Shown here one piece after another: positions 4,260 to 59,500 of a DNA stretch of 64,000 nucleotides. The translations under genes were made by a program, and so were the position numbers. Under the pieces are notes generated by a model. The model was not told where the DNA came from, made no database searches, and saw only the letters and a program-made list of their open reading frames with translations. Origin of the DNA: Dillenia suffruticosa (Eukaryota; Streptophyta; Magnoliopsida; Dilleniales; Dilleniaceae); assembly GCA_033439265.1 (NCBI GenBank), contig JAVTVX010000009.1:1911609-1975608 (forward strand). The letters run 5' to 3'. Positions within the stretch are counted from its first letter, which is position 1, and each line of letters opens with the position of its first letter.

Positions 4260-7199
4260 TTTATAATAATTTCAAACATGGCATTGTTGAAGTTGCACTT
4301 GCATTGCAAGCATGCAATTATTTTATTTTTTTATTTTTTTATTTTTTTTTGCCATTGTCTCCACTTGATTGAAATTATTGTTGCTTGTCCCTGGAAAGGT
4401 AAAATTTGCAAATCAACCTTTTTACAGAGGAGAGAGACTCATCTAATATGATTAACAGAACAGAAAATAACTTTTGACAAGATGATTACTATGAAAAAAG
4501 AAAAGTATGCAGAAAATGTCAAAAGAAGAAAATTCAAAAACCTGTCTGTTGCTGTCACATGAAAGGTCATGAGGATGGCCTTGGTCTTAAGCATCTTTCC
4601 TGATAGGAAAGTATAGATTGATTCCCCCCTCCCTCCATAAAGTATATATGGAAAAAAAAAAAAAAAAGAAACTACTCCCTATCCAATTTTCATGGTTTGG
4701 CCTCAAATAGTCATTGTCATTCACTCTTTTGAGCTAAACCCTAAAATTAAAAATTTTTGACAATTTTTCTCTTTCTTGAGCTAGAAATTTTGGCGTTGTC
4801 TAGACTCGAATTGAAAATCTTTACTGTGTTAGTCTGACATGATAATCAATTATGCGATAATTCGCTTTTACTAAAATTTAATAAAACAAGTTAAAAATTT
4901 CAAAAATATCATAAAAAATTTTAAAAATATTAGTGGAACTTTATAAAATGTTTATTTGTTGAAAATTATATTCTCAAACGTCTCTCCCTCACTGGCCCGA
5001 CATGCGGCGCTTCTTATATAAATTTTTAATTTTGCCTTTGATAACGGCGCATCGCATGGACTTGAAATTCCTTAATAATGTCTAAACTGCTAAAGATGAT
5101 GTTTTGAATTCCTTAATAATGTCACATTACTCTTGTAAAGTGAACCATACAGGACCACTTGATTAGTAGATTAAAGGTCATTTAACCCATTAAACAAGAA
5201 CAAACAGGCAAATGATTACAATGAACACTGTCTCCTTATTATGTTTTCAATGCCTCAAGATCTCATAGAGGGAATCTGTCCAAGAATCAGATGGCATAAT
5301 CCAACACACTCTTTTAGTCAACTTATACTTTTCTATTACTATTTCTTTTTCTCTTTTTTTTTTTTTCCTTTTTGGTGGGCTATGCTTCTCTATCATTATA
5401 CAAATTACAAAGCCAAGGAGGAATTTTTAGGGTTGGAACCCATCATTAGGAACTGAGGCCTAAGTTCTTGATTTGAGTCATTTGGAATTTAATTTGGTGT
5501 ATAATAGTTGTAAAGGTAGAAGCTGAATCATGGGTCAAACCTCAGCTTTGGCTAAAAAAAAAATGTTTTGGCTCCAAAAATAGGATGCAAATATTTCATT
5601 ATATCTAAAAATATTTATATATTAAAATATTAATTAATTAAACTGATAAAATTTATAGAAATCGTTGATCCCATTCTGGGAGGATTTATGGCAAGATATC
5701 CCCCACCCCAACCCCCCCCCCCCCCAAAAAAAAAATTGCAGTCCTTGGACAAGAATTAGAGGATTTTTTTTTTAATTTTTATGAATCATCGGTATCCGAT
5801 AACAATAATAGGTTGGATTGGACCATTGGACAAAACTTTTTCAATGTTGTTTAAATAATATCGATATTCAGTCATTCAACCAACTAAATATTAATAACTA
5901 TAAAAGCGTTTTCACTGGCTTCTCGGGTAACTATAAAGCCTTTCTTGCTTGTTATTATAAGTTCTTAAAATAAAAAAGTTCTTTTTGCTCAAATCTGCAT
6001 TTATTTATGAAAGTGATTAAGAAATAAAACGCATCTTGTTTGGTGCAAGCGAAAGCAAAATTTGCCTTTTATATGCCTTTGAAACATGCTGCTAAAATGA
6101 AAGACCATTCAAGTAAAGTCACTTTAGTACTAAAATCATGGGGTCATGTCTCCCCAAACCTAGAGTACCACATTGAAGGTAGGCCAAAAGTTACTTTATG
6201 ATTCTACAATATTTTGTTCGCTAATCATTTCATACTTTATCTAATCTAACCCATTATTGTTATTTCCATAAAGCCAACAATTTTGTATTATGAAGGATGA
6301 TTAGGCACTGCTTAATCAAACTGTGAGCAAGATGATTTAGAGATTAAGTAAATCTGCATTGTTTTCCATGCATGACTCACAAGGGTATTAAAACAAGAAC
6401 AACATCAACAAATCTAAATTGAGAATAGAATGAAGTAAAACTTGGTATTATAATTTATTAATAGTTCATTTATCTTTTAAGTTTAAATTTTCTTTTATTA
6501 TGGTATCAGATTCAGAGTCAGAGTCAAAATCAGAATCAAAGCGAGAACCAGAGATAACACCAAGCTATATTCAAATATCTCTAATACAGAACAAGAATAT
6601 ATCTAATACGAAAGACAGGAACATCCAAACATAGATATCAAGAGCCCTTAATATATTTAAATTTTATAAAACAATGGTTTACCACCAAATTAGTGTAGTT
6701 TTGTAGCCGAAGTGTTTATATTATTTTTATAAGTTAATACGGAGATATTTATATCATTTTCTACATGTATTGACATATATTATAGAATATTCCACACATT
6801 AAATATTAAATGAGATAAGCAGAGTTTTTCTTAATAGTATGATTTGAACCGATAATTTTCGATTCTCGTTATATCTTAAATTTTATGGAAAAAAACCATT
6901 TATATAAAAAATTTAAGCTTGTAAGAGAGGTATACATACATACATACATATATTTATATATATGTATATATTAGTAAATTAACAAATATATCTGAAACAT
7001 GTAAGCATCCCTTACATTCTTAAACTTGGTTGTCTAATACATGAAAATCCCAACAAGTACTTGACTCAAAGACTCATATACCTTAAAATATCATTAACAT
7101 GAAGTACATGAAAAGAAAAATCCTAAAATTGCGAAGAACAATATCATGATAATCTCATGATAATTGTAAAGGCACCAGGCAAGACCTAATATGCCTTTT

Positions 7200-7582
7200 G
7201 CTCCAGGAAGAAAGGGAAATCATAAACTAAATAATACAAAGAATTGAAAAGAAGAATTTAAAGAGCAGATCGATCGGACCAGGAGTGCTTGATTCCCCAT
7301 GCAATGGATGATCTCCATATCTTATTTCTCCGAGCTAGGAGGGACCTAGAAAATCCATTAATGAGTAGCTAGAGAAGCCACCAGTCTCTTTAAAATGACA
7401 GAGAAGCCTAAACTCATTCTCTTCAACTGATGAAACATGGATGAACACTTTATCAAAGGTGAGAGAAACAGCAACCATTGTTTGAGAAAACAAAACAGTG
7501 GCTGTAGAACTGGACACACAAATACTGAGGTTATGTTTGAAATGAACATGAGGGACAGACAAAAGAGGACATATATATACTA
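7200..7582 (-). ncRNA. Probable long non-coding RNA carrying a miR166 target-mimic site
   Basis: On the minus strand a TATA-like box (GTATATATAT, about 7580-7571) precedes a stretch that is visibly richer in GC than its flanks and contains only short, unremarkable frames (the longest is 75 codons). About 280 nt downstream of the box lies a site complementary to miR166 but interrupted by a 4-nt bulge at the position where Argonaute would cut. This is the layout of endogenous target mimics, of which IPS1 with miR399 is the archetype; miR166 mimics have also been predicted in plants. The role, sequestering miR166 and so relieving class III HD-ZIP mRNAs, is inferred. The transcript ends and any introns cannot be placed. 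A (GA)n tract sits just upstream (7604-7625). Confidence 0.5.
7274..7298 (-). promoter_or_regulatory. miR166-complementary site with central bulge (target-mimic candidate)
   Basis: The minus strand reads GGGGAATCAAG, then CACT, then CCTGGTCCGA. Canonical miR166 is UCGGACCAGG followed by CUUCAUUCCCC. Its nucleotides 1-10 pair perfectly with CCTGGTCCGA. Nucleotides 11-21 pair with GGGGAATCAAG except for one mismatch at miRNA nucleotide 14. The extra CACT is unpaired exactly between miRNA positions 10 and 11, which would block slicing. IPS1 has a 3-nt bulge; this one is 4 nt. Confidence 0.6.
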
Positions 7583-7603
7583 GGTAAGATTCTATATGAA
7601 GAT

Positions 7604-7625
7604 GTGAGAGAGAGAGAGAGAGAGG
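7604..7625. repeat. (GA)n microsatellite
   Basis: A GA-dinucleotide run lying just upstream of the presumed minus-strand promoter of the candidate non-coding RNA. Read on the minus strand it is a CT tract, common in plant promoters and leaders. Confidence 0.9.
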
Positions 7626-7629
7626 TCAT

Positions 7630-10600
7630 ATGTTAGAAGAAAAGCTTTATCTAAGGAAAGCATTAACTTGTAAATATTTTGGTGGGCACGCATACAGTAG
7701 ACTGTTGACACTCCAAAATCTTATTCTTTTTCTTATATTCCCGCATGCATGTCCCCCTTTTGTGCACAGTGTGGGCACGATTTCACAAGAAAAGAGTGAA
7801 CGAAGGAATTAGAGGCTAAAATGGGTTTTTCCTTTTTTTTTTTTTGGAAAAATGCTAATCAGTATTTTATTTCAAATTAAATATTAGACAATTATTATGA
7901 GACAGATAAATGGTTTTAGAAGAACCTTTTTCAAGACAAGCTGTGTTGTTTCTTTTTTTTTTTTTTTAAATTGATTTTTGCTTTGAAACTTTGAAGAAAA
8001 ATGCCATTGGTGTCCTAAAGCTAGGACTCCCTCCCTACTACTAATAAAGCATGCCTTACAAAAGGAGCTTTAGGGATGTGGGGGGTTAGAATTGGTTTTC
8101 AATTTTGGTCGGTTTTGTCAAAAAGCTTTCTAATTTTAATGCTGGACTTTGGATATGTTGCTTGATCTGTGGGCCTCCTTTACAACCTTTGAGGAATCAT
8201 AGCTAGGTGATTTCCCCCTTTTTTTCTCATGATCCAATGGAGTTGCTTTAGGTGATTGATTATCGTCCGGTAGAGATTGGCTAAAAGATTAGAAATTGTT
8301 GTCCTTTTGTTTGTTCTTGTTTGTGTGAAATTAAACTTATTTAATTATTTTTTTAATAAATCATTGATATCTAATAATTACGTTATAGGTTGAATTTTTA
8401 AGAAAAAAAACTCTCATAATATTATTTTATTTATACACATAATTCAAATTCAAAATCTTATTTAACAAGAATCGGTATTCAACCAGTAAACCAATTATAT
8501 ATTGATACGTGCATATATTATATTGTAGTTGTGAATGCGATCCCATTTCGATCTCTCTTAAATTAGTTGATTGTATTCCATTTGTTTAACTTATCCTTTT
8601 TGCCACCCAAAACACGATATATATTTTTGTTAGGGCATGGAGTAGATTCCAAGTAATGAAGTTTTGCAACACATAAGTGCCAAAATAGTGACACATTTAA
8701 GATGCACTTCTCACAACTTTGATGATTATCTTCTAAAATTTTCTGACTTTATACCTAAAGTTTATTAGTTGTATTTACCATATATGTATTTACCAGATAT
8801 GCATGATCTGTTAAACTATTGCAGATACCCTGTAAATTTATCGAGATATACCAAAAAATAATGATTAAAGTTTTTATCGTTATAAAAAATAAAAACTTAT
8901 GGGGAATGATTAACAATGTATTCAATACAAAAGTATATCTAAGATGGCCCCTCTAATTTCTTTAGAGGCCTAACCCCATCCTATACTATTGGCATAATTA
9001 TAATAATTTGATCAATTATTTGCACTCTATCCTAAATAAAATCATAGCTAACATTAAGATGGACTATAAAGTTCTTCCTCATTTATTAAATGCAAAAAAA
9101 TATTAAAGGGTTGACTTAATCTCTTTATTTTAATCAAGCGAGTCGAATTATATTATAATTTTAAGGTTTATTTATTAGATAGTCGGGTATAAATATTAAC
9201 TTCAATTTTTATGTAAAAAAAAATAGGTTGGCTTGTACAATTAATAAAATAAATCTAAATTTCATAAAATTTTAAAAGAAAACCCTTAAAAACTCGACTT
9301 TAGTCTTCACTTTCTAAAATAAACTGAGTTGATTATCTTCCTCGTTTACAGAAGTTTTAAAAATTTTTAAATTCATTTTCGAAAAATCTTTTATTGGATC
9401 TGATTTATCCGATATTAATCTATCTACAATAATAAAAATTTATTCTACCAACTATATAATAATCATCAGCATCGTCTCAATAATGAAAAGCAAAAGTAGC
9501 ATGTGTAGAACAAAAATATATGAATCGTATTAATTTTATTTGATCATCTGATTAATTATATTATGGGGTTTAATTTAGAGATTCTCTCATAATATTTATT
9601 TTTTTTATTTTTAAAATTTGAATTTAAAATTTGAATAAAAAAATTTTAGTATCAACATATTAAATTGATATACTTGTCTGATTATCTTTTCAAATCAACG
9701 GTCTATATGTCACCCTCGTGCCGGAGGACCACAGTACTTCCACTGCGTTACGCTCAACCGAAACTTGTCCTTCTATTTCCTTTTACATTATTTTTTCAAA
9801 AGAAAAAAGAAAAAGAAAAAGGTTGAAGGCTCCACTTGCCCCTTGGACCCATCTTCTTGACACATGTCAAGGTCAGAGGCGGCTCGTTTCGCACGCTCAT
9901 TTTCTCGTGGGCTTGTGGTCCTTTTGCCATTGCCAGAGACTTCGCGTGGAAGACAATTAATGCGGGGAAACACGAGATTGGGCCTTTTAAGTGGGCCACC
10001 CGTTTGCTATGGTAATAAAATTATGCTTTTTTTTTTTGGTGCTATAATAAAAACTATGCTACTTGCTGCCAAAGGGTCCTTAAGATTTCATGTTGATGTT
10101 CATGTTCCCCTTTTTCCATCGCTGGGGCCTAAAGTCAACCATCCGAACATGCCTTTTGGGAAAAGGGCAAGAGCAGAAGACTTCTCCCTCAGGAGGACCT
10201 TTGGGGTCTATTGGGTGTTTGCTTCCTTTCATTTGTTTACATCACAATCAAATCAAACAAGCTTAATATAATACTTATGGATCAATCATTTTATCAATAA
10301 TTAATACTTTTTTTTTATCGATATCTAATTAGTTTAATCAATATATACTAATATCTCTCAAATAATATCTATTGATTTAGTGAAAATGACGTTATACTTT
10401 TAAATCAAGAATAGGGTTCAAATTTTTAAAATGGAATGAATTAGTTAGAAGCACTCCCTCTTAAAGAGAATTCGACAGCTGTTCAGATCGGATTAATCAG
10501 AATATTTTTCAAATATCAATTGGTTCATGTAACTAAAAAAAAAAAGGAAAAAGTTGGCTTAAATATAATTCGTAAAATGTTTGTTTCAATTTATCTCAAT

Positions 10601-13464: not shown

Positions 13465-13545
13465 GAGAAAAACCCTCACTTCGTGTCGGTCATCTTCAGA
13501 CTTCATCTCCTAAACAGCTAACCCAAAATCCTCTTATCAACAACC

Positions 13546-23855: not shown

Positions 23856-25493
23856 TCAAGGGTTATAACATTTAGGTACCAAATGGAGCGGAGTTTTCTT
23901 ATGAAGCATAAATCCATATGATTCAGTCATGTCCAAGTCCTCCCTAGTTGTCCCCATTGGAAGATCCCAGTCAAACCAATACAAGAGATTGACAATGAGA
24001 TATTCCACATTTGCTAGACCAAATAGCATTCCAGGACAACTTCTTCTTCCTGAACCAAACGGAATAAACTGAAAATCTTGCCCTTTGAAATCTATCGGAT
24101 TATTATAAAACCTCTCCGGGTGAAACTCCTTGGGCATGTCCCAGAACATGGGGTCCATCTGAATGGCCCATGCATTGATCATAACTGTTGTTTTTGGAGG
24201 AATATCATAGCCTCGGAGTTTGACCCATGATTTTGTTTCACGGGGAATCAAGAAAGGAACGGGGGAATGTAATCTCAGAGTCTCTTTGATGGCAGACTTC
24301 AAGTGGTCCATTTGATTGATGTCATTCAAATCTACCTCTCCTTTCCTTCCTACTACTCTTCTTACCTCTTCTTGAGCTTTCTTCAATGCACTAGGGCTTT
24401 TTGCGAACTCTGCCATTATCCACTCCAATGTGAAGGAAGTAGTATCAGTTCCACCAATTAGCATGTCCTACAAAACAAAACATTAAGTTTGTACATGTAC
24501 ATATGTATATGTGAATATATATATATTGAGAGAGAGAGAGAGAGAGCAAGATTATACAAGAATGAGTCCTTTGATGACCTCCCGAGTGAGTTCAAAGCCG
24601 AGATAGCCATCCTTTCTAAGATGAAGAAGAACTTCAACAAAGTTTTTCTTCTCAGATTGCTCATTTTCTATCATGTTGTTCTCGTGCTTTTTGACTACTT
24701 GATCTAGAAAACCATCCATTTCATTAAAAATCTCTTTCATTTTCCTATTACAGCCAGTAAACTTATCCATCCATCCAATGGAAGGAAAAGTTTCTCTAAA
24801 GCTGAAAGCAAACATGAGATCCATAGCTTTCAATGAAACCTGTCCAAACCTTATCCATGCTTCATCACCTTCATATTTTTCACCAAGAACACACCTGCAA
24901 ATTATATTATTTACTGTACTATTTATCAACTCACTAAGATTAACCAAAACTTTTTCTTCGCAAGCCTCACGTATTTTTTCAATCAAATTTGCTGTTTCCT
25001 CTTCCCTAATGAACTGAAATGATTCTACTCTTTTGGAGCTCAGGAGCTCAGAAACACAAACGCGCTTTAGTTGCCTCCAGTACTCACCATAAGGAGAAAA
25101 CCCAAGCTCCTTGCATCCATAAAAAAAGGTATTGGCAGCCGCTGACTGGTGCCTATTTGCAAAAGTCATGTCGTTGGTTTTCATGATGTCCATAGCAACC
25201 TCAGGTGATGAAACAACGAGTGTTGGAATTTGTCCGAAATGCAAGAGCATGAGAGGCCCATATTTCTTAGAAAGAACACCGAGTGAGTGATTCGGCATTG
25301 AACCAAGCTGATGAAGGTTACCAATGAGGGGAAATTTTGGAGGTGATGGAGGCAACTTGACATTGCTAGAAATTCCTTTGAGTTTAGGAATCAGGACTAT
25401 AGCCAAGAAAGCTAGACAAACAACAAAAGGGACAAATGTTGGTGTTTTCGGCACTAGTTGCACATGTTGTTGCAACAACTGTTGTTGATCCAT
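23856..25493 (-). CDS. Cytochrome P450, CYP71 type (tandem copy 1)
   Basis: Two exons, 25493-24558 and 24467-23856, are separated by a 90-nt GT-AG intron and encode 515 residues. A hydrophobic N-terminal anchor (about residues 19-37) precedes the proline-rich hinge PPSPPKFPLIGNLHQLG. The I-helix has GGTDTT (317-322), the K-helix ExxR is E374 with R377, PERF is at 429-432, and the haem loop FGSGRRSCPG (449-458) has Cys456 as the thiolate ligand. All parts of an active microsomal monooxygenase are present. CYP71-clan enzymes act in specialised metabolism (terpenoids, phenolics, cyanogenic or defence compounds); the substrate cannot be read from sequence. A TATA box (25525-25534) lies only about 30 nt above the ATG. 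It differs from copy 2 at 41 residues by my count, 40 of them before residue 417. Confidence 0.93.
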
Positions 25494-25524
25494 TGAGTCC
25501 TAAATTTGTAAAATCTTCTGCTAC

Positions 25525-33564: not shown

Positions 33565-33720
33565 TTTGTTATTAACCATTACTATCTGATAATTATATTA
33601 AATTTAAGTAAATTCGATTTGAATCAAATTAAACTCTTAACGAACAAAATTTTTCTAAAGTTTATTTATTTTTTATTTACAAGAGTTGACTAGCAGATTT
33701 TATTTAAAAATTATGCAAGT
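33565..33720 (+). repeat. Copy of a dispersed degenerate repeat family
   Basis: TACTATCTGATAATTATATT, then GATTTGAATCAAATTAAACT, then ACAAAATTTTTCTAAAG, then GATTTTATTTAAAAATTATG. Paralogous to 49215-49385 in copy 2. Confidence 0.55.
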
Positions 33721-33942
33721 AGATATTGCTTCTTTTTTATTATTTTTTCTCTTCTAGTCTTTCTTCTCTCACTCGCAAAATATAACATTTGTACGATGAT
33801 AATACAATTCTTAATTTCTATAGAGTTTATCTATAATTGTTATTATTATTTTTTCAGAAAGGCCACAGCCAGATGTCGTTCTGACTTGCTCTTGTCCAAT
33901 CCCCTAATTTTTTTTTGTTTCAAACAGTTGACATTTGGAGAT

Positions 33943-36029
33943 ATGATATCCTCTACTCTCCCAATTGTTGCCGCCAAAACCTCAACTCCCGGAACTACTA
34001 TTCCCCAATTTCTTGAAAACCCTAAAGCCCTAATTCTCCACCATTGCAAGACCTGTAGAGATCTCAATCAAATTCATGCCCATGTCATCAAAACCCGCCA
34101 ACATCTCAACCCCATTATTGTCGAAAGCCTCCTCGAATCCGCCGCCATACTCTTCCTCAATCCACGGACTATGCTGTCTCCATTTTCGATCAAATCGATG
34201 AACCCAATTCGGCTGCTTATAATGTAATTACAAGATGCTTCATTTTGAAACATTCTCCTCATGAAGCAATTAGATTGTTTAAGAAAATGGTAGAATGTTC
34301 TGTTGAGCCGGATAATTTCACTTTCCCTGTATACTAAAAGCTTGCTCTAGATTGCAAGCTGTAAACGAAGGCGAGCAAATCCATGCCCAGATCGTGAAAC
34401 TTGGATTTTGGTCAAATGGGTTTGTTGTGAATTCTTTGATACACGTGTGTGCTAGTTTTGGAAAAATTGAGGTTGCGCGTCGCGTGTTTGATGGAAGGTC
34501 TGATAGGGGGATTGTTAGTCGGAATTCATTGTTTACGGGGTACACTAAGAGTGGGCATTGGGAAGAGATTGTGAATTTGTTTAGAGAAATGGTTCGGTTG
34601 GGTGTTAATTTTGATGAGGCTACTTTACTTGGTGGTTGATGGCATGCGGGAGACTAGCAGATATATGGTTAGGTGAATGGATTACTGAGTATATTAAGGA
34701 AAATGGTTGATGGGAAATGAGGCATTAGTTACTTCCTTAGTTGATATGTATGCAAAATGTGGCCATATAGATGTAGCGCAGAGATACTTCGATCAAATGC
34801 CTGAAAAAGATGTTGTATGGAGTGCGATGATATCTGGATAGAGCCAGTCGGTTAATTGTAGAGAAGCACTTGATCTGTTTCATGAGATGCAGAAGGCAAA
34901 TGTGGATCCCAGTGAAATCACTATGGTCAGTGTGCTTTCCTCTTGTGCTGATCTTGGGGCTTTAGAAACAGGGAAATGGGTCCATTCCTTCGTGAAGAAA
35001 AGGAGGTTGAAGCTGACTGTGACTCTTGGTAAAGCCTTAATTGATTTTTATGCAAAATGTGGATGCATAGAAAACTCGGTTGAAGTGTTCAATGAGATGC
35101 CTCTGAAGAATATATTGTCTTGGACAGCACTAATCCAAGGCCTGGCTAATAATGGACGAGGGAAAAAAGCGCTCCAGTTCTTCCTACTGATGCAAGAAAC
35201 GAATGTTAAGCCAAACGACGTGACATTCATTGGTGTTCTTTCTGCTTGTAGTCATGCCCGTCTTGTTGATGAGGGTGAGGCTTTCTTTGTGAGCATGAGT
35301 AGGGACTTTGGCATTGAACCAAGGTTGGAGCATTATGGTTGCATGGTTGATATCCTTGGTCAAGCTGGTAAGATGGAAGAGGCTTATCGGTTCATAAAGA
35401 ATATGCCAATTGAACCAAATGCTGTTATATGGAGAACCTTGTTGGCTTCAGGCAGAATTCATAAAAATGTTGAAATCACAGAAAAATCAATAAAACACCT
35501 TGTGAAGTTGGAACCGATGCATAGTGGAGATTATATTCTTTTGTCTAATGTTTATGCATCAGTTGGTAAGTCAGAAGATGCACTGAGATTGGAGCCAAAT
35601 GAAAGAGAAAGGAATTAAGAAGTCCCTGGGTTGTAGTTTAATTGAACTCGATGGACAGATTCATGAGATTTTGGCTGAAGAAAATAAACATCCATATGCA
35701 CAGGAGATTTACGATGCAACTGAGAGCATGATGAAGAGGATAAAGTTAGCTGGCTATGTGCCCAACACAGCAGAGGCAAGATTAGAACCGGTGGACGATG
35801 ATAGGGGAGCTTCAGTGTCTCACCATAGTGAAAAGTTGGCAATTGCATTATGCATCATCAGAACTTCGCCAGGAATTACAATTAGAATATCAAAGAATTT
35901 GTGGGTGTGCATTGACTGCCACAATGCAACAAAGTTCCTATCAAAAGTTTTTCATAAATTGTGGTTAGGGATCAGAATCGTTTCCGTCATTTTAAAGATG
36001 GTATTTGCTCCTGCAAAAATTACTGGTGA
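33943..36029 (+). pseudogene. Decayed copy of the DYW-class PPR gene
   Basis: This is an unprocessed duplicate of the intact gene at 49609-51705, alignable from start to stop. Against that gene it has one-base deletions near 34151 and 34326, a two-base deletion near 34630, a one-base deletion near 34704, a three-base deletion near 34816, an in-frame TAG at 34839-34841, a two-base deletion near 35590 and a four-base deletion near 35955. The longest remaining frame (34887-35618) covers only the middle PPR motifs, and the final DYW tripeptide is out of frame. The start is shifted one codon upstream, because the original ATG is now ATA. Nothing suggests it is still translated as a whole; a transcript could still be made from its conserved upstream region. 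Confidence 0.93.
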
Positions 36030-36762
36030 ACACTACATGGCCTCAGTCCTCTAGGCAAGTTAGGTCAAATTTGGGGCATTCTTTGGATGATACAACTCAA
36101 CTAATTCATTTATGGATAGAGGATTCATTTGGAGAGAAACCAGGCTGCCTTGTCTTCTGTTTCCTGCCTGTTTCCTGCCTAGTGTGTTTTAGTTGTACAT
36201 CCATACACGACAATTTATAGAATTTCTTTCTCATATCTTGCTTTCTTGTTTGCCCTCATTGATGGTGACATTGAAAAGGGTTTTAGATCCACTTAAGAAT
36301 ACAGTAGGATAGAGAGGCTTGTTTCTTGAGTCATCCAATAGCACCAAGGCAGGGGAAAAGCTGTACAAAACTCTTTTCAACTCAAGCTATTCGGTCACAA
36401 ACATTTTCTCTGATAAAGAAAAAGGGTGATTTGCAGTTTTGAATTGGATGACATCACCTGTATAATCCTTTGTTTGTTCTATGGGTTTCATATAAGGTAC
36501 TTATAGCCAGAGCTTGTGGTTGCACCACTGTCAGAGTCCATTAAGTAGCAGCAAGTTCAATAAGGCAATAAATTCATCTATCTGGCCAGCAAAATTTGAA
36601 AGGATAAGTGGATGGCTAACATTATATTATTTCGTCTAAATGTTATACAAGATGTTTCTTTTTCCCATGTACTAAGCTTTGTGTGCAGCATCTTTTAAAA
36701 TGAGCGACGTGCTTTTCCCATTATCTATGGTTAAGAGCACTTATTGAAGCAAAAGAAGAAAC
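36030..36762. other. 3' flank of the PPR pseudogene
   Basis: Almost the same as 51706-52436 downstream of the intact PPR gene. It probably holds the old 3' UTR and then the spacer to the kinase fragment. No gene is seen. Confidence 0.6.
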
Positions 36763-39811: not shown

Positions 39812-41439
39812 TCAAGGGTTATAACATTTAGGTACCAAATGGAGCGGAGTTTTCTTATGAAGCATAAATCCATATGATTCAGTCATGTCCAAGTCCTCCC
39901 TAGTTGTCCCCATTGGAAGATCCCAGTCAAACCAATACAAGAGATTGACAATGAGATATTCCACATTTGCTAGACCAAATAGCATTCCAGGACAACCTCT
40001 TCTTCCTGAACCAAACGGAATAAACTGAAAGTCTTGCCCTTTGAAATCTATCGGATTATTATAAAACCTCTCCGGGTGAAACTCCTTGGGCATGTCCCAG
40101 AACATGGGGTCCCTCTGAATGGCCCATGCATTGATCATAACTGTTGTTTTTGGAGGAATATCATAGCCTTGGAGTTTGACCCATGATTTTGTTTCACGGA
40201 AAATCAAGAAAGGAATGGGGGGATGTAATCTCAGAGTCTCTTTGATGGCAGACTTCAAGTGGTCCATTTGATTGATGTCATTCAAATTTACCTCTCCATT
40301 CCTTCCCACTACTCTTCTTACCTCTTCTTGAGCTTTCTTCAATGCACTAGGGCTTTTTGCAAACTCTGCCATCATCCACTCCAATGTGAAGGAACTAGTA
40401 TCAGTTCCACCAGCTAGCATGTCCTACAAAACAAAACATTAAGTTTGTACATGTATATATGTATATGTGTATAGAGAGAGAGAGAGAGAGAGAAAGATTA
40501 TACCAGAATGAGTCCTTTGATGCCCTCCTGAGGGAGTTCAAAGCCGAGACTGCCATCCTTTTTAAGTTGAAGAAGAATTTCAACAAAGTTTTTCTTCTCA
40601 GATTGCTCATTTTCTATCATGTTGTTCTCGTGCTTTTTGACTAATTGATCTAGAAAACCATCCATTTCATTAAAAATCTCCTTCATTTTCCTATTATAGC
40701 CAGTAAACTTATCCATCCATCCAATGGAAGGAAAAGTTTCTCTAAAGCTGAAAGCTAACATGAGATCCATAGCTTTCAATGAAACCTGTCCAAACCCTGT
40801 CCGAGCTTCATCACCTTCATATGTTTCACCAAGAACACACCTGCAGATTATATTATTTGCCGTACTAATTATCAACTCACTAAGATTAACCGAAACTTTT
40901 TCTACGCAAGCCTCACGTATTTTTTCAATCAAATTTGCTGTTTCCTCTTCCCTAATGAACTGAAATGATTCTACTCTTTTGGAGCTCAGGAGCTCAGAAA
41001 CACAAAGGCGCTTTAGTTGCCTCCAGTACTCACCATGAGGAGAAAATACAAGCTCCTTGCATCCATAAAAAAGGGTATTGGCAGCCGCTGACTGGTGCCT
41101 ATTTGCAAAAGTCATGTCGTTGGTTTTCATGATGTCCATAGCAACCTCAGGTGATGAAACAACGAGCGTTGGCGTTTGTCCAAAATGCAAGAGCATGAGA
41201 GGCCCATATTTCTTAGAAAGAACACCGAGTGAGTGATTCGCCAATGAGCCAAGCTGATGAAGGTTACCAATGAGGGGTAATTTTGGAGGTGATGGAGGCA
41301 ACTTGACATTGCTAGAAATTCCTCTGAGTTTAGGAATCAAGAGTATAGCCAAGAAAACTAGACAAACAACAAAAGGGACAAATGTTGGTGTTTTCGGCAC
41401 TAGTTCCACATGTTGTTGCAACAACTGTTGTTGATCCAT
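39812..41439 (-). CDS. Cytochrome P450, CYP71 type (tandem copy 2)
   Basis: Exons 41439-40504 and 40423-39812, with an 80-nt intron, give 515 residues, the same length as copy 1. The membrane anchor, PPSPPKLPLIGNLHQLG hinge, I-helix GGTDTS (317-322), E374/R377, PERF (429-432) and haem loop FGSGRRGCPG with Cys456 are all intact. Relative to copy 1, several substitutions fall in or near likely substrate-recognition regions: Y-to-H in FSPHGEYW, AWIRF to ARTGF, and PFLIPRE to PFLIFRE (residue 387, a position that is usually Pro in this clan). Residues 417-515 differ from copy 1 only at 455 (S to G). A similar TATA box is present at 41479-41487. It is likely active, perhaps with altered substrate preference; the substrate is unknown. 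Confidence 0.93.
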
Positions 41440-41478
41440 TGAATCCTAAATGTTCATAGTCTTCTGCTACTATGCTAC

Positions 41479-46402: not shown

Positions 46403-46866
46403 CTGCGCGCGGACGCGGGCGCGGGCGCATGCACGCACGGGCGCGGGCGAATGCACGCACGTGCGCACGGGCGCCTGCTTGCCTGGGCGGCCGAGCCCTA
46501 CGCGCGCCTGTCTCGGCTCCCGCGCTTGCCTGCCTGGGCGCCTAGGCAGGCGCGCAAGCGCCCAAGCAGGCAGGCGCGGGCGCCCAGGCAGGCAGGTGCG
46601 GGCGCCCGCGCCCCAGCAAGCGCGAGCGCACGCCCGTGCGTGCCTGCTTGCGCGCCTGTGCCGGGGCGTGCCTGCCTGGGAGCCTAGGCAGGCGCAGGTG
46701 CCCAGGCAGGCGTGCGGGCGCCCAGGCAGGCAAGCGTGGGCGCCCGCGCGCCTTGGGGGCCGAGGCAGGCGCGCGGGCGGCCAGGCAGGCAGGCGCGAGG
46801 GCGGCCAGGCAGGCAGGCGCGAGCGCCTGCACCCCAGTAGGCGCGCGCGCACGCCCGCGCGCCCTT
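46403..46866. repeat. Very GC-rich island made of short palindromic units
   Basis: About 460 bp almost without A/T runs, in a region otherwise dominated by A and T. It is built from degenerate units such as GGCGCCCAGGCAGGCAGGCG and the opposite orientation CGCCTGCCTGGGCGCC. One unit, CCTGCCTGGGCGCCTAGGCAGG split as CCTGCCTGGGC and GCCTAGGCAGG at 46529-46550, is a near-perfect palindrome. Frames stay open on both strands only because stop codons are AT-rich; the translations are Arg/Ala/Pro/Gly repeats, so I do not call a gene. Strong secondary structure is expected. Confidence 0.85.
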
Positions 46867-48113: not shown

Positions 48114-49608
48114 AGTAACAATTCCAACCACCGTTCCATCGACCAGCACCAGAATCCGCATCTCTTCCATCTCCTACTGGAATCCCCATTCAACTCTCCT
48201 CTATTCTCAGGAATCTCAGCATGCTCTAGTTTTGTCATTGGCTTACGATCAGTGTCAAAGTGTGTATTCAACAATAAATGTTGAAGGAATCAAATGCCTT
48301 TTTTTTTTTGGGAACTCATGGCCTAACTTGCATGTCTATAAAGAAACAGACTAGTTATACAAACTCTCTCACAACCTAATGTTCTCATATTTAAATCATT
48401 ATACAACAAAAAAAATGATCTTGCTTGCATGAAAAGAAAAATAATAATGAATACAAAACGATACAAAAAAATATAATTTTGTAAGAATACAATAAATGGA
48501 AATACATGAATTTTTATATAAATATTAATTATTTTATAGAAATAATGGAATAATTATATTTTATAATAAAAATCTAAAATGATAAAATATGTAATTATTA
48601 ATTATAAAATAAATAATATAAAAAATATAATTGTAATTAAATAAAAAATAATTTATTAAATATGAAAAATGTGTAAATATAAAAATATAAGAATTTTTAT
48701 ATAAATATTAATTAATTTAGTATGTCGAAATATTTTAAAAATAAAAAAAATGTTAGTGTTGAGATGTTTTCATGTATCCTGCGGCTACCGTATGGATCTT
48801 CCTGTTTTAATGGCATTATTTCAAAAGAGTTGTTGCATATGATGTCGCACGATCTCCTCCATCATTGAAAATTTTCTCCTTTCCTTTCCCTACATTATGC
48901 ATAGAAGAAAGATGATGCTTACATTTGTTGTTTGGTTACAATTTAACGTGTGCTCTCCATTTCCATTTTTTTGCCTTTTATTTCTTTCTTTTTATCTTGA
49001 ATCGGCTCAAATAAAAAGTAAGAAAAAAATTATGTAAATTTAGATGTAAACATATTTAAAGATTCCGATGATAATAGGTTAAAAATTTCTTGGCATTTTA
49101 TAATTTCAAATCGGCTAAAAAAAATCATACCAAAATTATGTTAAAAAAGAAAATAGATACAAGTGTTATTGATTTTAATATTTCTTTTTTTTCCCCTCTT
49201 CTTCTTCTTTTAATATAAACCATTACTATCTGATAATTATATTGAATTCGAATAAATTCAGTTCAAATTATATTGAATTTTTTTTAACAAAAAAAAAAAA
49301 ACTTTTTTAATGCTTATTTTTTTCATTCACCAGATTTGACTATCGAATTTTATTTAAAGAGTATTTAGGCATAATTACTAAACCAAATAGATATTGCTTT
49401 TTATTTTTTTATCTTCTTAGTCTTTCTTCTCTCACTCACAAAATATAACATTTGTACGATGATAATACAATTCTTAATTTCTATAGAGTTTATCTATAAT
49501 TGTTATCTTTATGTTTTTCCGAAACGCAACAGCCAGATGTCGTTTTGACTTGCTCTAGTCTAAAGCCCTCATTTCTTTTGTTTCAAACAATTTACATTTG
49601 GAGGTCTG
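48114..49608. other. Upstream region of the intact DYW-PPR gene
   Basis: Continuous with 32570-33942 of copy 1 and carrying its promoter and leader. There is no obvious TATA box near the ATG. No gene is seen. Confidence 0.55.
49215..49385 (+). repeat. Copy of a dispersed degenerate repeat family
   Basis: TACTATCTGATAATTATATT, then GAATTCGAATAAATTCAGTT, then GAATTTTATTTAAAGAGTAT, then ATAATTACTAAACCAA. Paralogous to 33565-33720. Confidence 0.55.
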
Positions 49609-51705
49609 ATGGCCTTTACTCTCCCAATTGTTGCCGCCAAAACCTCAACTCCCGGAACTACTATTCCTCAATTTCTTGAAAACCCTAAAACCCTAATTCT
49701 CCACCATTGCAAGACCACTAGAGATCTCAATCAAATTCATGCCCATGTCATCAAGACCCGCCAACATCTCAACCCCATTATTGTCGAAAGCCTCCTCGAA
49801 TCCGCCGCCATACTTCTTCCTCAATCCACGGACTATGCTGTCTCCATTTTCGATCAAATCGATGAACCCAATTCGGCTGCTTATAATGTAATTATAAGAG
49901 GCTTCATTTTGAAACATTCTCCTCATGAAGCAATTAGATTGTTTAAGAAAATGGTAGAATGTTCTGTTGAGCCTGATAATTTCACTTTCCCCTGTATACT
50001 AAAAGCTTGCTCTAGATTGCAAGCTGTAAACGAAGGCGAACAAATCCATGCCCAGATCGTGAAACTCGGATTTTGGTCAAAGGGGTTTGTTGTGAATTCT
50101 TTGATACACATGTATGCTAGTTTTGGAAATATTGAGGTTGCGCGTCGTGTGTTTGATGGAATGTCTGATAAGGGGATTGTTAGTTGGAATTCATTGTTTT
50201 CGGGGTACACTAAAAGTGGGCATTGGGAAGAGATTGTGAATTTGTTTAGAGAAATGGTTCGGCTGGGTGTTAATTTTGATGAGGCTACTTTACTTGGTGT
50301 GTTGATGGCGTGTGGGAGACTAGCAGATATAGGGTTAGGTGAATGGATTAGTGAGTATGTTAAAGAAAAAGGGTTGATGGGAAATAAGGCATTAGTTACT
50401 TCTTTAGTTGATATGTATGCAAAATGTGGCCATATAGATGTAGCGCGGAGATACTTCGATCAAATGCCTGAAAAAGATGTTGTTGCATGGAGTGCGATGA
50501 TATCTGGATATAGCCAGTCAGGTAATTGTAGAGAAGCACTTGATTTGTTTCATGAGATGCAGAAGGCAAATGTGGATCCCAGTGAAATCACTATGGTCAG
50601 TGTGCTTTCCTCTTGTGCTGATCTTGGGGCTTTAGAAACAGGGAAATGGGTCCATTCCTTAGTGCAGAAAAGGAGGTTGAAGCTGACTGTGACTCTTGGA
50701 ACAGCCTTAATTGATTTTTATGCAAAATGCGGATGCATAGAAAACTCGGTTGGAGTGTTCAATGAGATGCCTCTGAAGAATGTATTGTCTTGGACAGCAC
50801 TAATCCAAGGCCTGGCTAATAATGGACAAGGGAAAAAAGCTCTCGAGTTCTTCCTACTGATGCAAGAAAAGAATGTTAAGCCAAGCGACGTGACATTCAT
50901 TGGTGTTCTTTCTGCTTGTAGTCATGCCGGTCTTGTTGATGAGGGTCAGGCTTTCTTTGTGAGCATGACTAGGGACTTTGGCATTGAACCAAGGTTGGAG
51001 CATTATGGTTGCATGGTTGATATCCTTGGTCGAGCAGGTAAGATGGAAGAGGCTTATCGGTTCATAAAGAATATGCCAATTGAACCAAATGCTGTTATAT
51101 GGAGAACCTTGTTGGCTTCATGCAGGATTCATAAAAATGTTGAAATTGCAGAAAAATCAATAAAACAGCTTGTGAAGTTGGAACCGATCCATAGTGGAGA
51201 TTATATTCTTTTGTCTAATGTTTATGCATCAGTTGGTAAGTCAGAAGATGCACTGAGATTGAGGAGCCAAATGAAAGAGAGAGGAATTAAGAAGTCTCCG
51301 GGTTGTACTTTAATTGAACTGGATGGAGAGATTCATGAGATTTTGGCTGAAGAGAATAGACATCCATATGCACAGGAGATTTATGATGCAACTGAGAGCA
51401 TGATGAAGAGGATAAAGTTAGCTGGCTATGTGCCCAACACAGCTGAGGCAAGATTAGAAGCGGTGGATGATGATAGGGGAGCTTCAGTGTCTCACCATAG
51501 TGAAAAGTTGGCAATTGCACTAGGCATCATCAGAACTTCACCTGGAACTATAATTAGAATATCGAAGAATTTGAGGGTCTGCATTGACTGCCACAATGCA
51601 ACAAAGTTCATATCAAAAGTTTTTCATAGAGAAATTGTGGTTAGGGACCGGAATCGCTTCCATCATTTTAAAGATGGTATTTGCTCCTGCAAAGATTACT
51701 GGTGA
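49609..51705 (+). CDS. DYW-class PPR protein (organellar RNA editing factor candidate), intact copy
   Basis: An intronless frame encodes 698 residues. After a short N-terminal region (CKTTRDLNQIHAHVIKT near 30-50) come PLS-type PPR triplets, for example YNVIIRGFILKHSPHEAIRL, WNSLFSGYTKSGHWEEIV and WSAMISGYSQSGNCREALDL. E and E+ motifs follow, then a DYW domain. The deaminase-like zinc signature is complete: H630-S-E632 in SHHSEKLA, C658-I-D-C661 in CIDCHNATK, and the terminal CSCKDYW. DYW proteins edit specific cytidines to uridine in chloroplast or mitochondrial transcripts; the target site and organelle cannot be read here. The start at 49609 is the first ATG and fits the family. The copy at 33943-36029 is a pseudogene, so this gene presumably carries the function alone. 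Confidence 0.95.
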   Translation: MAFTLPIVAAKTSTPGTTIPQFLENPKTLILHHCKTTRDLNQIHAHVIKTRQHLNPIIVESLLESAAILLPQSTDYAVSIFDQIDEPNSAAYNVIIRGFILKHSPHEAIRLFKKMVECSVEPDNFTFPCILKACSRLQAVNEGEQIHAQIVKLGFWSKGFVVNSLIHMYASFGNIEVARRVFDGMSDKGIVSWNSLFSGYTKSGHWEEIVNLFREMVRLGVNFDEATLLGVLMACGRLADIGLGEWISEYVKEKGLMGNKALVTSLVDMYAKCGHIDVARRYFDQMPEKDVVAWSAMISGYSQSGNCREALDLFHEMQKANVDPSEITMVSVLSSCADLGALETGKWVHSLVQKRRLKLTVTLGTALIDFYAKCGCIENSVGVFNEMPLKNVLSWTALIQGLANNGQGKKALEFFLLMQEKNVKPSDVTFIGVLSACSHAGLVDEGQAFFVSMTRDFGIEPRLEHYGCMVDILGRAGKMEEAYRFIKNMPIEPNAVIWRTLLASCRIHKNVEIAEKSIKQLVKLEPIHSGDYILLSNVYASVGKSEDALRLRSQMKERGIKKSPGCTLIELDGEIHEILAEENRHPYAQEIYDATESMMKRIKLAGYVPNTAEARLEAVDDDRGASVSHHSEKLAIALGIIRTSPGTIIRISKNLRVCIDCHNATKFISKVFHREIVVRDRNRFHHFKDGICSCKDYW

Positions 51706-56503: not shown

Positions 56504-59500
56504 TCAATGCAGCTTCTCCTCCCCAGCAATCAGATCCATTACCACACGCTTGATACTCCCATTGTTCTTCTTCAGCAGCTTCTTGTTCATTTCTCTATCA
56601 CAGAAACCCTACAGTAGAGACAGTTGAGAGCGGAGGCATCTTCAAGACCATGAATTTAGAATTACAGAAAATGAGATAGAACCTAAGTCATGATGTAATC
56701 AGGCTTACCATCTCATTCAGCTCTTCAAGGATCGGATCCCACTCGGAAACACCACAGAGATCATCCACCGATTGCTCCATGTCGTACTCATTCCTTCGCA
56801 AGATCTCCTTGTTCAAATCCACTTGCTTAAATCCCATGTCTTCTAGTTCCTTCAGAAGAGTTTGCTCCACATTATGGTTTCCAGATGGCCATGCAGATGA
56901 TGTTGGCACATCCGGCGCTGTTGCTGAAACAGGGACAGGTGGTGATGAGAGGTCAATGATGGGATAAGACACTATAGGAACCTCAGATGAAACTGGTTCT
57001 GAAACACCACTGCCAACTATCAAGGTATCATTTGTAGGGAAATTCAGATCATTAAAATCTGATGGCTTCTCAGCAAGACTCTGTTTCCCAGACTCTTCAG
57101 CAGCTTCAGAGTTGTGAGGCTTGGACAAGCTAGCACCAAGCAAGTTAATTTTTTTGTCCGCAGCTTCACCAGGTCTTGGAATGCCACCGCTGAGAAAGTT
57201 GTTTGATTCTTCATCGGCGGAGCATCTTACCGTCTCCTTAGATTTGTTCGAGTCCAGTCCACTAGGCAGAAGGGGTTCAACATCCACATCAATGACTTGA
57301 GCAACCCTGGCATCACTTTCTGGAGGCAGATTCAGGTTTATTCCACCACAACCGAAGGATGCAGAATCCTCCTCAACGGTCACCACCTAGATTGAAAACA
57401 AAGAAGTTAATAAAACAGTGCGATAATCAACCAAACGAATCACCACGTACCTCACTTAAGAATGTCATGAGCACGTGCACCATAATACCTGAATAAGAAC
57501 CCAGACACGCTGTCCAAACTTTTGGCCAGATGGCAGCGCCATTCTCCAGTATGAGGTGTAGCGACCAGGCAGTTCAGGTGCTTTGAAATCAACTGCCACA
57601 TCAAGCTCTTTCTCCACGGGCAAACCATTCTCTGGGATCTGCCCAAAGGAAAAAAGGGGGGGACATTAAAAATGGTTTCTCAAACAAAAACCCAGGAATA
57701 ACCGGAGGCAGATATATCTAACAGGGAGACCCAAATTTGTACCTCTAATTCAACTGACTCAGTTGTAGAGAATCTATCTCCCCCAATCCAGATAAGCAGT
57801 GTCCCTCTTGGCCAAACAGTAGTGCCATTGTTCCTCATCCTCCAAATCTTTGTAAAATCTGTTGATGGTGATAGAATGGTGCCATCCATAACATTTACAT
57901 CAAGAATGAAGCGGCTGTCTAGCCTAGGTCGAACTGGCTTCATCCCGCAACTTCTCATGACATGCGGTGGATGAGATGGTCGAACCCAATGGGGCTTCAA
58001 CTGGTGCAAAAAGCTTTAATCAATTAAACTGAATCTGAGGTTCATAAGATTTAAGTCTATGGTATGCAGGATTTTCTTCTCAGCCAATGGACATGATGGA
58101 ATTATCAACATACCGGAGGATAGAATCCCTTGAGAGGCCATGGTTGATGAAAAGATGCTGGTCGGTCCATCCTAACAAAATCAGCTTCATTACCAATCTG
58201 CGAGAAGCAGATGCTGCACAAGTCATAATCTTCTTTCCTGCATGGAGGAAAGAAAAAATCACAAAATCAACTCTAGTAACTCAAACGCAGAAAGACAAAT
58301 AAAAAAGCACCACTTAAATAAGCTTCTTACACTTTCGACTTGAAACGGGGACCTGTAATTGGACGAACACCACAGCCATCACACTGAACACCCCTATGGA
58401 AGACAACAGCTCCATCACTGTGATGATAACCTCTCCGAAATGGAGGAGGAATTGGTGCTGCTGGCTTAGGAGGTACATATGGCTCAGTTGACAGGGGCAC
58501 GCCACTAAAAGGGCATGTATTAGTATACGCAGTCCAAGAATATGGCATCATCGCAGAGTTCCCAGTTGGCACTCTTGAAGAGTTCCCAGCATCTGTAGGA
58601 TATAACACACTCGCACCACCACCTCCAAATTCAGCAGCACCCTGGGGAGGAACTGTAGTAGAATGTTTGGTTGGATCAACCAAACCACCAGAGGCAGCAA
58701 AGTTTGAACCACTTAATACATGATCAACACTAATAAGATCCTTGGACAAAGTTTTTGGTGCAGATGGTGCCAGATTAGAATTCTCTAAGGACTTAGAAAT
58801 GGAACCAGAGAGTCCATTGGCAGAAACAGGGGCAGTATTTCCAGATGTCTCTGTGCATCTGCTTTTGTGTCCAAGGTCTTGCTGCTCCCGAGTCATCGTA
58901 GTTCCAGGGTCTACCACTTTAGAACCTGAAGGTACCATCTGCAAGTTTGAGCCATCTTTCAGAGCCTCTGGATGCTCAGCAAGGGATGGATCCACAACTC
59001 TAGAAGCATCACTTTGTGTGCTAGCAACTGGATCAACTTGTGACTGAGAAACAAGGTCAGGGAGAGATATCCCCCGGCTTGAAAGGAGCTCAATAAGCTC
59101 AGCAAAAACTGGAGCAGATGTCGAAGCCTTTAAAGCCATGTCAAGAGACAACTTTGAAAGAGTTTCCTGAAATGGCTCTGGTACAAACTTCAAAATTTCA
59201 GCAATACTGGCATTAAGGTTAGGTACTGGCTGCCAAGCTCTGGGTGACCTCATGGGAGTAGAAGTTCCACTCGATCTGCCAAAAGATTTAGCAGTTTTAT
59301 CTGTATTTAACGATACATTAATCCTCACAGGATTGAGACACTGCCTAATCACATCATGAAGATCCTCATCATCGACTAGTGCAACAACATCACCATCTTC
59401 ATCAACATATGTGAGCTTAATATCAGCATCCGAAGCAAGATTAAATAGACTGAGGACCTTCATCCGTAGACCATTCATGTCAAGATTCAATTGCTCATCA

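What the first reader, a model, noticed from the sequence alone, without database searches (positions are those of the whole stretch)
7274..7298. Candidate endogenous target mimic of miR166 in an unannotated non-coding transcript
The minus strand pairs perfectly with miR166 nucleotides 1-10 and with ten of nucleotides 11-21, but four extra bases (CACT) sit exactly opposite the slicing point. A TATA-like box about 280 nt upstream and the lack of a convincing protein frame suggest a non-coding RNA like IPS1. miR166 restrains class III HD-ZIP genes, so a decoy could affect leaf polarity and vascular development. The 4-nt bulge differs from the 3-nt bulge of IPS1.
Basis: partly seen in the sequence, partly recalled or inferred. 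Interest (0 to 1): 0.85.

Follow-up and report, generated by a model that had tools for sequence, protein, structure and literature searches.

The report
Likely miR166 decoy RNA gene pair
A plant intergenic region carries a near-perfect but probably uncuttable binding site for the developmental microRNA miR166, kept in both copies left by a duplication of that chromosome segment, so it is probably a natural decoy for miR166, a known kind of regulator, although nobody has yet shown here that it is transcribed.

Summary
Minus strand 7298-7274 reads GGGGAATCAAG[CACT]CCTGGTCCGA: it pairs with miR166 nt 1-10 and ten of nt 11-21 (mismatch at nt 14), with a 4-nt insertion at the slicing point. The exact pattern occurs once in the 596-Mb genome, 0 times reversed; a rough expectation for sites this good is 3e-6 per window.

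A syntenic duplicate on C15 (NBR1 neighbour also duplicated, Ks .17) keeps the site, the CACT bulge and the TATA block. The 47-aa upstream frame is not constrained. A MIR166-antisense origin and a plus-strand hairpin are not supported.

Against: conservation of the site above its flanks is only suggestive. Transcription, non-cleavage and conservation in other species were not testable.

The genome also holds four 3-nt-bulge miR166-mimic-like sites in two duplicate pairs sharing a 3' stem-loop; one pair follows a constrained ~100-aa frame.

Verdict: probable endogenous target mimic of miR166, a new member of a known kind (published in Arabidopsis, rice, tomato, citrus). Its 4-nt bulge fails the usual 3-nt rule but lies in the range active in synthetic decoys.

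The parts
7274..7298 (-). miR166 mimic site: pairs miR166 nt 1-10 and ten of nt 11-21; mismatch opposite nt 14 at 7291
7284..7287 (-). 4-nt bulge CACT opposite the slicing point (can slide one base to ACTC, 7286-7283); kept in the C15 duplicate
7272..7336 (-). best of 1934 66-column windows of the locus between the two duplicates; contains the site
   Evidence: one search shows by permutation that a window this good is not rare enough to stand alone
7562..7589 (-). 28-nt run identical in the C15 duplicate, containing TATATATAT (7579-7571); candidate core promoter about 273-281 nt upstream of the site
   Evidence: promoter function inferred
7000..7550 (-). putative transcript carrying the site (both ends inferred from the TATA position and conservation only)
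   Evidence: no expression data
7335..7478 (-). frame of 47 aa upstream of the site; a frame from the same ATG exists in the duplicate, but Ka .159 and Ks .194 over 38 aligned codons show no constraint
   Evidence: no Pfam match
7712..7744 (-). 33-nt run identical in the duplicate, upstream of the TATA block; candidate regulatory sequence
   Evidence: function inferred

Best explanation
The locus is a minus-strand, mainly non-coding RNA gene whose transcript carries one bulged miR166 site. miR166 loaded in Argonaute pairs with the site over both halves; the 4-nt insertion opposite nt 10/11 keeps the strands out of slicing geometry, so the RNA is not cut and holds the miRNA. This lowers free miR166 and lets class III HD-ZIP mRNAs accumulate where the RNA is made. 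Shown here: site, bulge, matching miR166 genes in the same genome, a syntenic duplicate that keeps them, no constraint on the one shared upstream frame. Inferred: transcription, non-cleavage, sequestration, effect on HD-ZIP III.
For: Exact pattern once in 596 Mb, control 0. With a 4-nt insertion and <=3 mismatches there are 4 hits, the best two being the two duplicates (1 and 2 mismatches), against 2 control hits. Duplicate at C15:2388797-2389493, 84% identity, keeps the site as CGGGAATCAAG[CACT]CCTGGTCCGA and the TATA block. Synteny: the NBR1 exon at window 58330-59574 has its copy at C15:2408592-2409818 on the same strand, Ks .174, Ka .089. 11 miR166 loci in the genome. The 63-aa frame is absent from the duplicate and the 47-aa frame is unconstrained. 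Two further pairs of candidate mimics exist. Synthetic 4-nt bulge decoys work in plants (PMC3121747). Published miR166 mimics: ath-eTM166-1, osa-eTM166-2 (PMC8005961) and tomato slylnc0195 (PMC4683531).
Against: No evidence of transcription. Site-versus-flank conservation within the pair is weak: 0.158 of 660 flank windows are as conserved. The site columns give nominal P .041 (7600-6900) or .014 (8313-6900), in an alignment that places the one difference at the site's edge as a gap, and 925 or 222 of 5000 column permutations hold somewhere a window as good as the 65-column block. The duplicate loses pairing at nt 21. The predicted fold leaves the site no more open than the rest in the window copy (mean unpaired .37 against .39.51 against .41 in the duplicate). 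The 4-nt bulge is outside the rule used for published eTM sets (PMC4274897). Only one related locus was found; no other plant species could be examined.
Confidence: 0.62

Rival explanations
1. Decayed or silent relic: the region once held a mimic (or still has the letters) but is not transcribed now; the duplicate keeps the site only because the duplication is young.
For: Divergence of the locus (.149 over 1265 ungapped columns) is near the synonymous divergence of NBR1 (Ks .174); site conservation is not clearly above the flanks.
Against: A site this good needed selection or descent at some time; TATA block, site and bulge survive in both copies; the 7600-6900 part diverged less (.109 over 667 columns).
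Confidence: 0.22
2. Antisense or inverted copy of a MIR166 gene that gained a 4-nt insertion, so the resemblance is by descent from a miRNA gene and not a decoy.
For: One of 11 MIR166 loci (L024) aligns to the 5' flank with score 18.5 (0 of 500 block shuffles; P .001 in 3000 dinucleotide shuffles); its sister L023 scores 14 (P .014 and .031).
Against: 15 of 4958 random window 150-mers score at least 18.5 and 304 of 4958 at least 14; 22 flank comparisons were made, so this is not significant; none of the eleven 3' flanks stands out (lowest P .18).
Confidence: 0.05
3. Plus-strand miRNA-like gene: the reverse strand TCGGACCAGGAGTGCTTGATTCCCC is a variant miR166 made from a hairpin.
For: The reverse complement resembles miR166 by construction.
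Against: Plus strand 7150-7400 folds worse than most shuffles (z +1.51; 191 of 200 shuffles fold at least as well); no Rfam match at the gathering score in the window.
Confidence: 0.02
4. Bulged site that miR166 uses for something other than decoying, for example repression of the short upstream frame without cutting.
For: A 47-aa frame ends 36 nt before the site in the window copy, and a frame of the same length from the same ATG ends about 24 nt before it in the duplicate.
Against: That frame is not constrained (Ka .159, Ks .194 over 38 codons).
Confidence: 0.07
5. Chance resemblance.
For: Sites with 3 mismatches occur near control level (4-nt pattern: 2 hits with 3 mismatches, 2 control hits).
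Against: Rough expectation .027 per genome and 2.9e-6 per window at <=1 mismatch; reversed controls 0.
Confidence: 0.02

Closest known systems
Published endogenous target mimics of miR166 (ath-eTM166-1, osa-eTM166-2; tomato slylnc0195; csi-eTM166)
   Same: Non-coding transcript with a bulged miR166 site; overexpressing or silencing published ones shifts HD-ZIP III mRNAs or leaf shape (PMC8005961; PMC4683531; PMC8215657; csi-eTM166 also PMC8861278; passages read only).
   Different: Here the bulge is 4 nt and expression is unshown. Sequence relation to those RNAs could not be tested; the original Arabidopsis/rice paper (Wu et al. 2013) is not held.
IPS1/At4 (miR399 mimic, Arabidopsis)
   Same: Central bulge opposite the cleavage site with pairing on both sides (described in PMC6162444, passages).
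   Different: Other miRNA, 3-nt bulge; sequence relation not tested.
Synthetic bulge decoys of Ivashuta et al. 2011
   Same: Insertions of 1-4 nt between positions 10 and 11 inactivated a plant miRNA best (PMC3121747, passages).
   Different: Engineered, for other miRNAs (miRMON1, miR171).
Four other miR166-mimic-like sites found in this genome (C9:3040793, C15:3878086, C24:3251245, C26:17097743)
   Same: Insertion near the same position, duplicate pairs.
   Different: 3-nt bulge; shared 3' stem-loop GTTTGCYnrrTsAAGCArAT absent at 7274; one pair follows a constrained ~100-aa frame.

Membership tests
Endogenous target mimic (rules of Wu et al. 2013 as quoted in PMC4274897) | Bulge of three nucleotides at positions 9-12 | tested here: not met
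   Position met, length 4 nt
Endogenous target mimic (rules of Wu et al. 2013 as quoted in PMC4274897) | Perfect pairing at nt 2-8 | tested here: met
Endogenous target mimic (rules of Wu et al. 2013 as quoted in PMC4274897) | At most three mismatches and G:U outside the bulge | tested here: met
   One mismatch in the window copy, two in the duplicate
Endogenous target mimic (rules of Wu et al. 2013 as quoted in PMC4274897) | More than 200 nt from neighbouring genes | tested here: inconclusive
   No annotation is held. The nearest coding region recognised is a PPR frame at 13522; 8 of the 21 frames of >=120 aa and two frames at the site were scanned with Pfam; short exons and sequence left of the window were not checked
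Endogenous decoy (rules of Ivashuta et al. 2011, PMC3121747) | 1-5 nt insertion opposite nt 10-11, no other bulge, at most 3 mismatches | tested here: met
Endogenous target mimic (functional) | miRNA encoded in the same organism | tested here: met
   11 MIR166-like loci, 9 exact in 20 nt, 11 of 11 fold as 3' arm; their expression not seen
Endogenous target mimic (functional) | Transcribed non-coding RNA | tested here: inconclusive
   47-aa frame unconstrained, TATA block kept; RNA not testable here
Endogenous target mimic (functional) | Not cleaved, raises target mRNA | not testable with these tools
   Needs degradome and overexpression
IPS1/At4 family | miR399 site | tested here: not met
   The site pairs miR166; no Rfam family reaches its gathering score in the window
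MIR166 gene (antisense origin) | Flanks homologous to MIR166 loci | tested here: not met

The most novel reading that the evidence does not exclude
This plant buffers miR166 with a layered set of at least six decoy loci retained as duplicate pairs: a non-coding pair with an unusual 4-nt bulge (this locus), and an older family in which the mimic site with its own 3' stem-loop sits, in one pair, behind a conserved small-protein frame, so that one RNA would make a peptide and hold miR166.
Probability: 0.3. Interest if true: 0.68.

Novelty: new member of a known kind. Interest (0 to 1): 0.48.

Why it matters
If transcribed, it is a natural miR166 decoy that 3-nt-bulge searches would miss, which would mean that mimic lists built with that rule are incomplete. 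miR166 and HD-ZIP III set leaf polarity and vascular pattern (general knowledge; tomato data in PMC4683531), and paired decoys kept after a duplication would make dosage control of this miRNA directly testable.

Tried and rejected
Plus-strand hairpin: folds worse than most shuffles. Minus-strand transcript fold: ordinary (z .06). MIR166 antisense origin: one of 22 flank comparisons looked good (L024; sister L023 weaker), but 15 of 4958 random window pieces score as high. HD-ZIP III sites: a 19-mer search with <=1 mismatch gave 0 hits in the genome; I recall that the site is split by an intron in these genes, so the targets were neither found nor excluded. A plain miR166 match in the window with <=3 mismatches and no gap: 0. 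Relatives elsewhere: 3 viral-contig hits to the site pattern lie in unrelated sequence, two of them the same GC-rich stretch. Literature: the site and fragments of the other mimic sites were not found as letters in the held papers. The other searches gave published miR166 mimics but no text that could be tied to this locus; the organism is unknown, and figures and supplements were not searchable. One paper speaks against bulged mimics being easy to find: a grapevine lncRNA survey reports none (PMC6488645, passages). The first alignment of the six mimic loci was in mixed orientation and was replaced. The frame at 9861-10271 was not identified.

Genome size, the 15-27 Mb contigs seen and Ks near .17-.20 would fit Actinidia (n=29), which is recalled and untested.

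Full report
OBSERVATION. The minus strand at 7298-7274 is GGGGAATCAAGCACTCCTGGTCCGA. Against miR166 (UCGGACCAGGCUUCAUUCCCC, recalled; 8 of the 11 miR166-like loci of this genome show this 21-mer) it pairs nt 1-10, nt 11-13 and nt 15-21, with a mismatch at nt 14 and four extra bases at the slicing point. The bulge may be written CACT between nt 10/11 or ACTC between 9/10. RNAduplex gives -30.8 kcal/mol, 0.70 of the perfect-site energy.

CHANCE. The window lies at C9:1911609-1975608 of a 596-Mb, 37-contig genome. The exact pattern with a 2-6 nt insertion and any base at nt 14 occurs once, and never reversed. With a 4-nt insertion and up to 3 mismatches there are 4 hits (1, 2, 3 and 3 mismatches) against 2 in the reversed control; the first two are this site and its duplicate. 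An independent-base estimate gives 0.027 sites per genome and 2.9e-6 per window at <=1 mismatch, any 1-6 nt insertion and three junctions; it is rough and rests on an assumed GC of 34.5%. Allowing for some 25 conserved miRNA families that a reader might have noticed (recalled number) still leaves chance small.

SURROUNDINGS. Between 1 and 13.5 kb I recognised no coding gene; the first recognised is a PPR frame at 13522. This rests on 8 of the 21 frames of >=120 aa and two frames at the site scanned with Pfam and on looking at the rest, so short exons could be missed. No Rfam family reaches its gathering score and no tRNA was found.

THE DUPLICATE. A DNA search with 6900-7700 gave 97 matches (40 of 178 candidates scored): itself, one long relative at C15:2388797-2389493 with 84% identity, and 95 short matches to an AT-rich stretch near query 730-770 or to the CT repeat near query 76-130. 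NBR1, 51 kb away in the window, has its copy 19 kb away from the C15 relative, on the same strand, so the block is syntenic. The NBR1 exon has Ks .174 and Ka .089 over 409 codons. The PPR gene at 13522 has no match on C15 at E <=1e-30. In the duplicate the site is CGGGAATCAAGCACTCCTGGTCCGA: same bulge, same nt-14 mismatch, one pair lost at nt 21. The 28-nt TATA run 7589-7562 is identical, as are 37 nt (7336-7300) just upstream of the site.

HOW STRONG IS THE CONSERVATION. Among 1934 windows of 66 columns the one holding the site is the single best. But a window as good arises somewhere in 925 of 5000 column permutations of 7600-6900, or in 222 of 5000 for 8313-6900. The site columns alone give nominal P .041 and .014 in the two ranges, in an alignment that puts the one difference at the site's edge as a gap. 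In another alignment, 0.158 of 660 flank windows are as conserved as the site. So the duplicate shows that the site survived a divergence of about .11-.15 per base; it does not prove selection on the site.

CODING. The 63-aa frame is absent from the duplicate. A 47-aa frame starts at the same ATG in both copies and ends 36 and about 24 nt before the site; it shows Ka .159 and Ks .194 over the 38 codons that I aligned by hand. The RNA, if made, looks non-coding.

OTHER ORIGINS. The plus strand has no miRNA-like hairpin. Flank homology to the 11 MIR166 loci is not significant after control: the best of 22 comparisons (L024) is matched by 15 of 4958 random window pieces.

RELATED LOCI IN THE SAME GENOME. 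A 3-nt-insertion pattern with <=3 mismatches gave 7 hits against 1 control. Four of the seven form two duplicate pairs by their 3-kb surroundings: C15:3878086 / C9:3040793 (GGGGAATTAAG[CAT]CATGGTCCGA, with CACGG in the C9 copy) and C24:3251245 / C26:17097743 (GGGGAATTGAAG[CCA]CTTGGTCCGA). The other three have 3 mismatches and showed no relation to each other. The first pair has a mismatch at nt 9, and its C9 copy a further one at nt 8, so that copy fails the seed rule; duplex energies are -27.8 and -27.1. The second pair pairs all 21 nt of miR166, with a 3-nt bulge that RNAduplex puts between nt 8 and 9 or nearby and one extra U (-34.5).

The two pairs are related to each other mainly over the site plus a stem-loop just 3' of it: 57 nt, 82%, E 1e-9 between the C9 and C26 copies in a six-locus comparison. 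Three of the four cross-comparisons show this stretch at E <=1; the C15-C24 one does not. A 42-nt 5' stretch also matches (E .004). A pattern for site end plus stem-loop finds these four at 0-1 mismatch, then one at 2 mismatches, with one control hit. By eye, one stem pair is broken in the C15 copy and one is G-U in the C24 copy, so covariation does not support the stem. The first pair follows a frame of 99-103 aa with Ka .032 and Ks .201 over 95 codons, that is, constrained; the second pair's frame shows Ka .132 and Ks .165 over the 50 codons compared. No Pfam match for the two frames scanned.

The window's locus lacks this stem-loop. Outside the site it shares with these loci one 92-nt stretch (74%, E 2e-7) about 1.1 kb upstream of the site, which also matches an unrelated locus (L043) and is probably a dispersed repeat; the remaining matches are short and mostly AT-rich. 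Within pairs the site is more conserved than most flank windows only in the C24/C26 pair (0.044; 0.342 in the C15/C9 pair; Fisher over three pairs .06).

MECHANISM AND KNOWN KINDS. The closest known things are the published miR166 target mimics and IPS1 (passages read). A published search rule demands a 3-nt bulge (PMC4274897), which this site fails. Synthetic bulge decoys with 1-4 nt insertions were the most active, 5 nt less so, 6-7 nt low (PMC3121747). I therefore judge that it works like an eTM and is probably one, with transcription, non-cleavage and effect on HD-ZIP III unshown. The original eTM166 paper is not held, so whether the same sequence family was described there is unknown.

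VERDICT. New member of a known kind; probability of a working decoy about .6. The most interesting lead is the set of six miR166-mimic-like loci, above all the pair behind a constrained small frame.

Noticed in passing
L052 (C15:3878086-3878109 -) and L053 (C9:3040793-3040816 -): miR166-mimic-like pair with a 3-nt bulge and a 3' stem-loop, downstream of a 99-103 aa frame under constraint (Ka .032, Ks .201 over 95 codons); no Pfam match for the C15 frame.
   Followed up: partly
L055 (C24:3251245-3251268 -) and L056 (C26:17097743-17097766 +): miR166-mimic-like pair, site identical in both copies, pairs all 21 nt of miR166 with a 3-nt bulge and one extra U; shares the stem-loop with the pair above.
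   Followed up: partly
window 23856-25499 and 39812-41445 (-); 33694-36054 and 49564-51705 (+): Two similar P450 genes and two similar PPR genes, each about 16 kb apart (similarity judged by reading the translations; first P450 copy, PPR piece 34842 and PPR 49564 scanned). The 49564 copy is one open frame with a DYW domain, the 33694 copy is broken into several frames: probably a local duplication.
   Followed up: no
window 46416-46827: GC-rich tandem arrays (units of 20-24 bp) with long overlapping frames on both strands in an otherwise AT-rich region.
   Followed up: no
window 7712-7744 and 8109-8173: Upstream stretches identical (33 nt) and 94% alike (66 columns) in the C15 duplicate, possible promoter elements of the putative RNA.
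   Followed up: no
window about 8410-8500 (-): Roughly 90-nt stretch upstream of the locus that matches L043 and L052, probably a dispersed repeat.
   Followed up: no
L024 (MIR166 locus on C5), antisense flank: Weak resemblance to the 5' flank of the site (score 18.5), not significant against window controls, possible hint of origin.
   Followed up: yes
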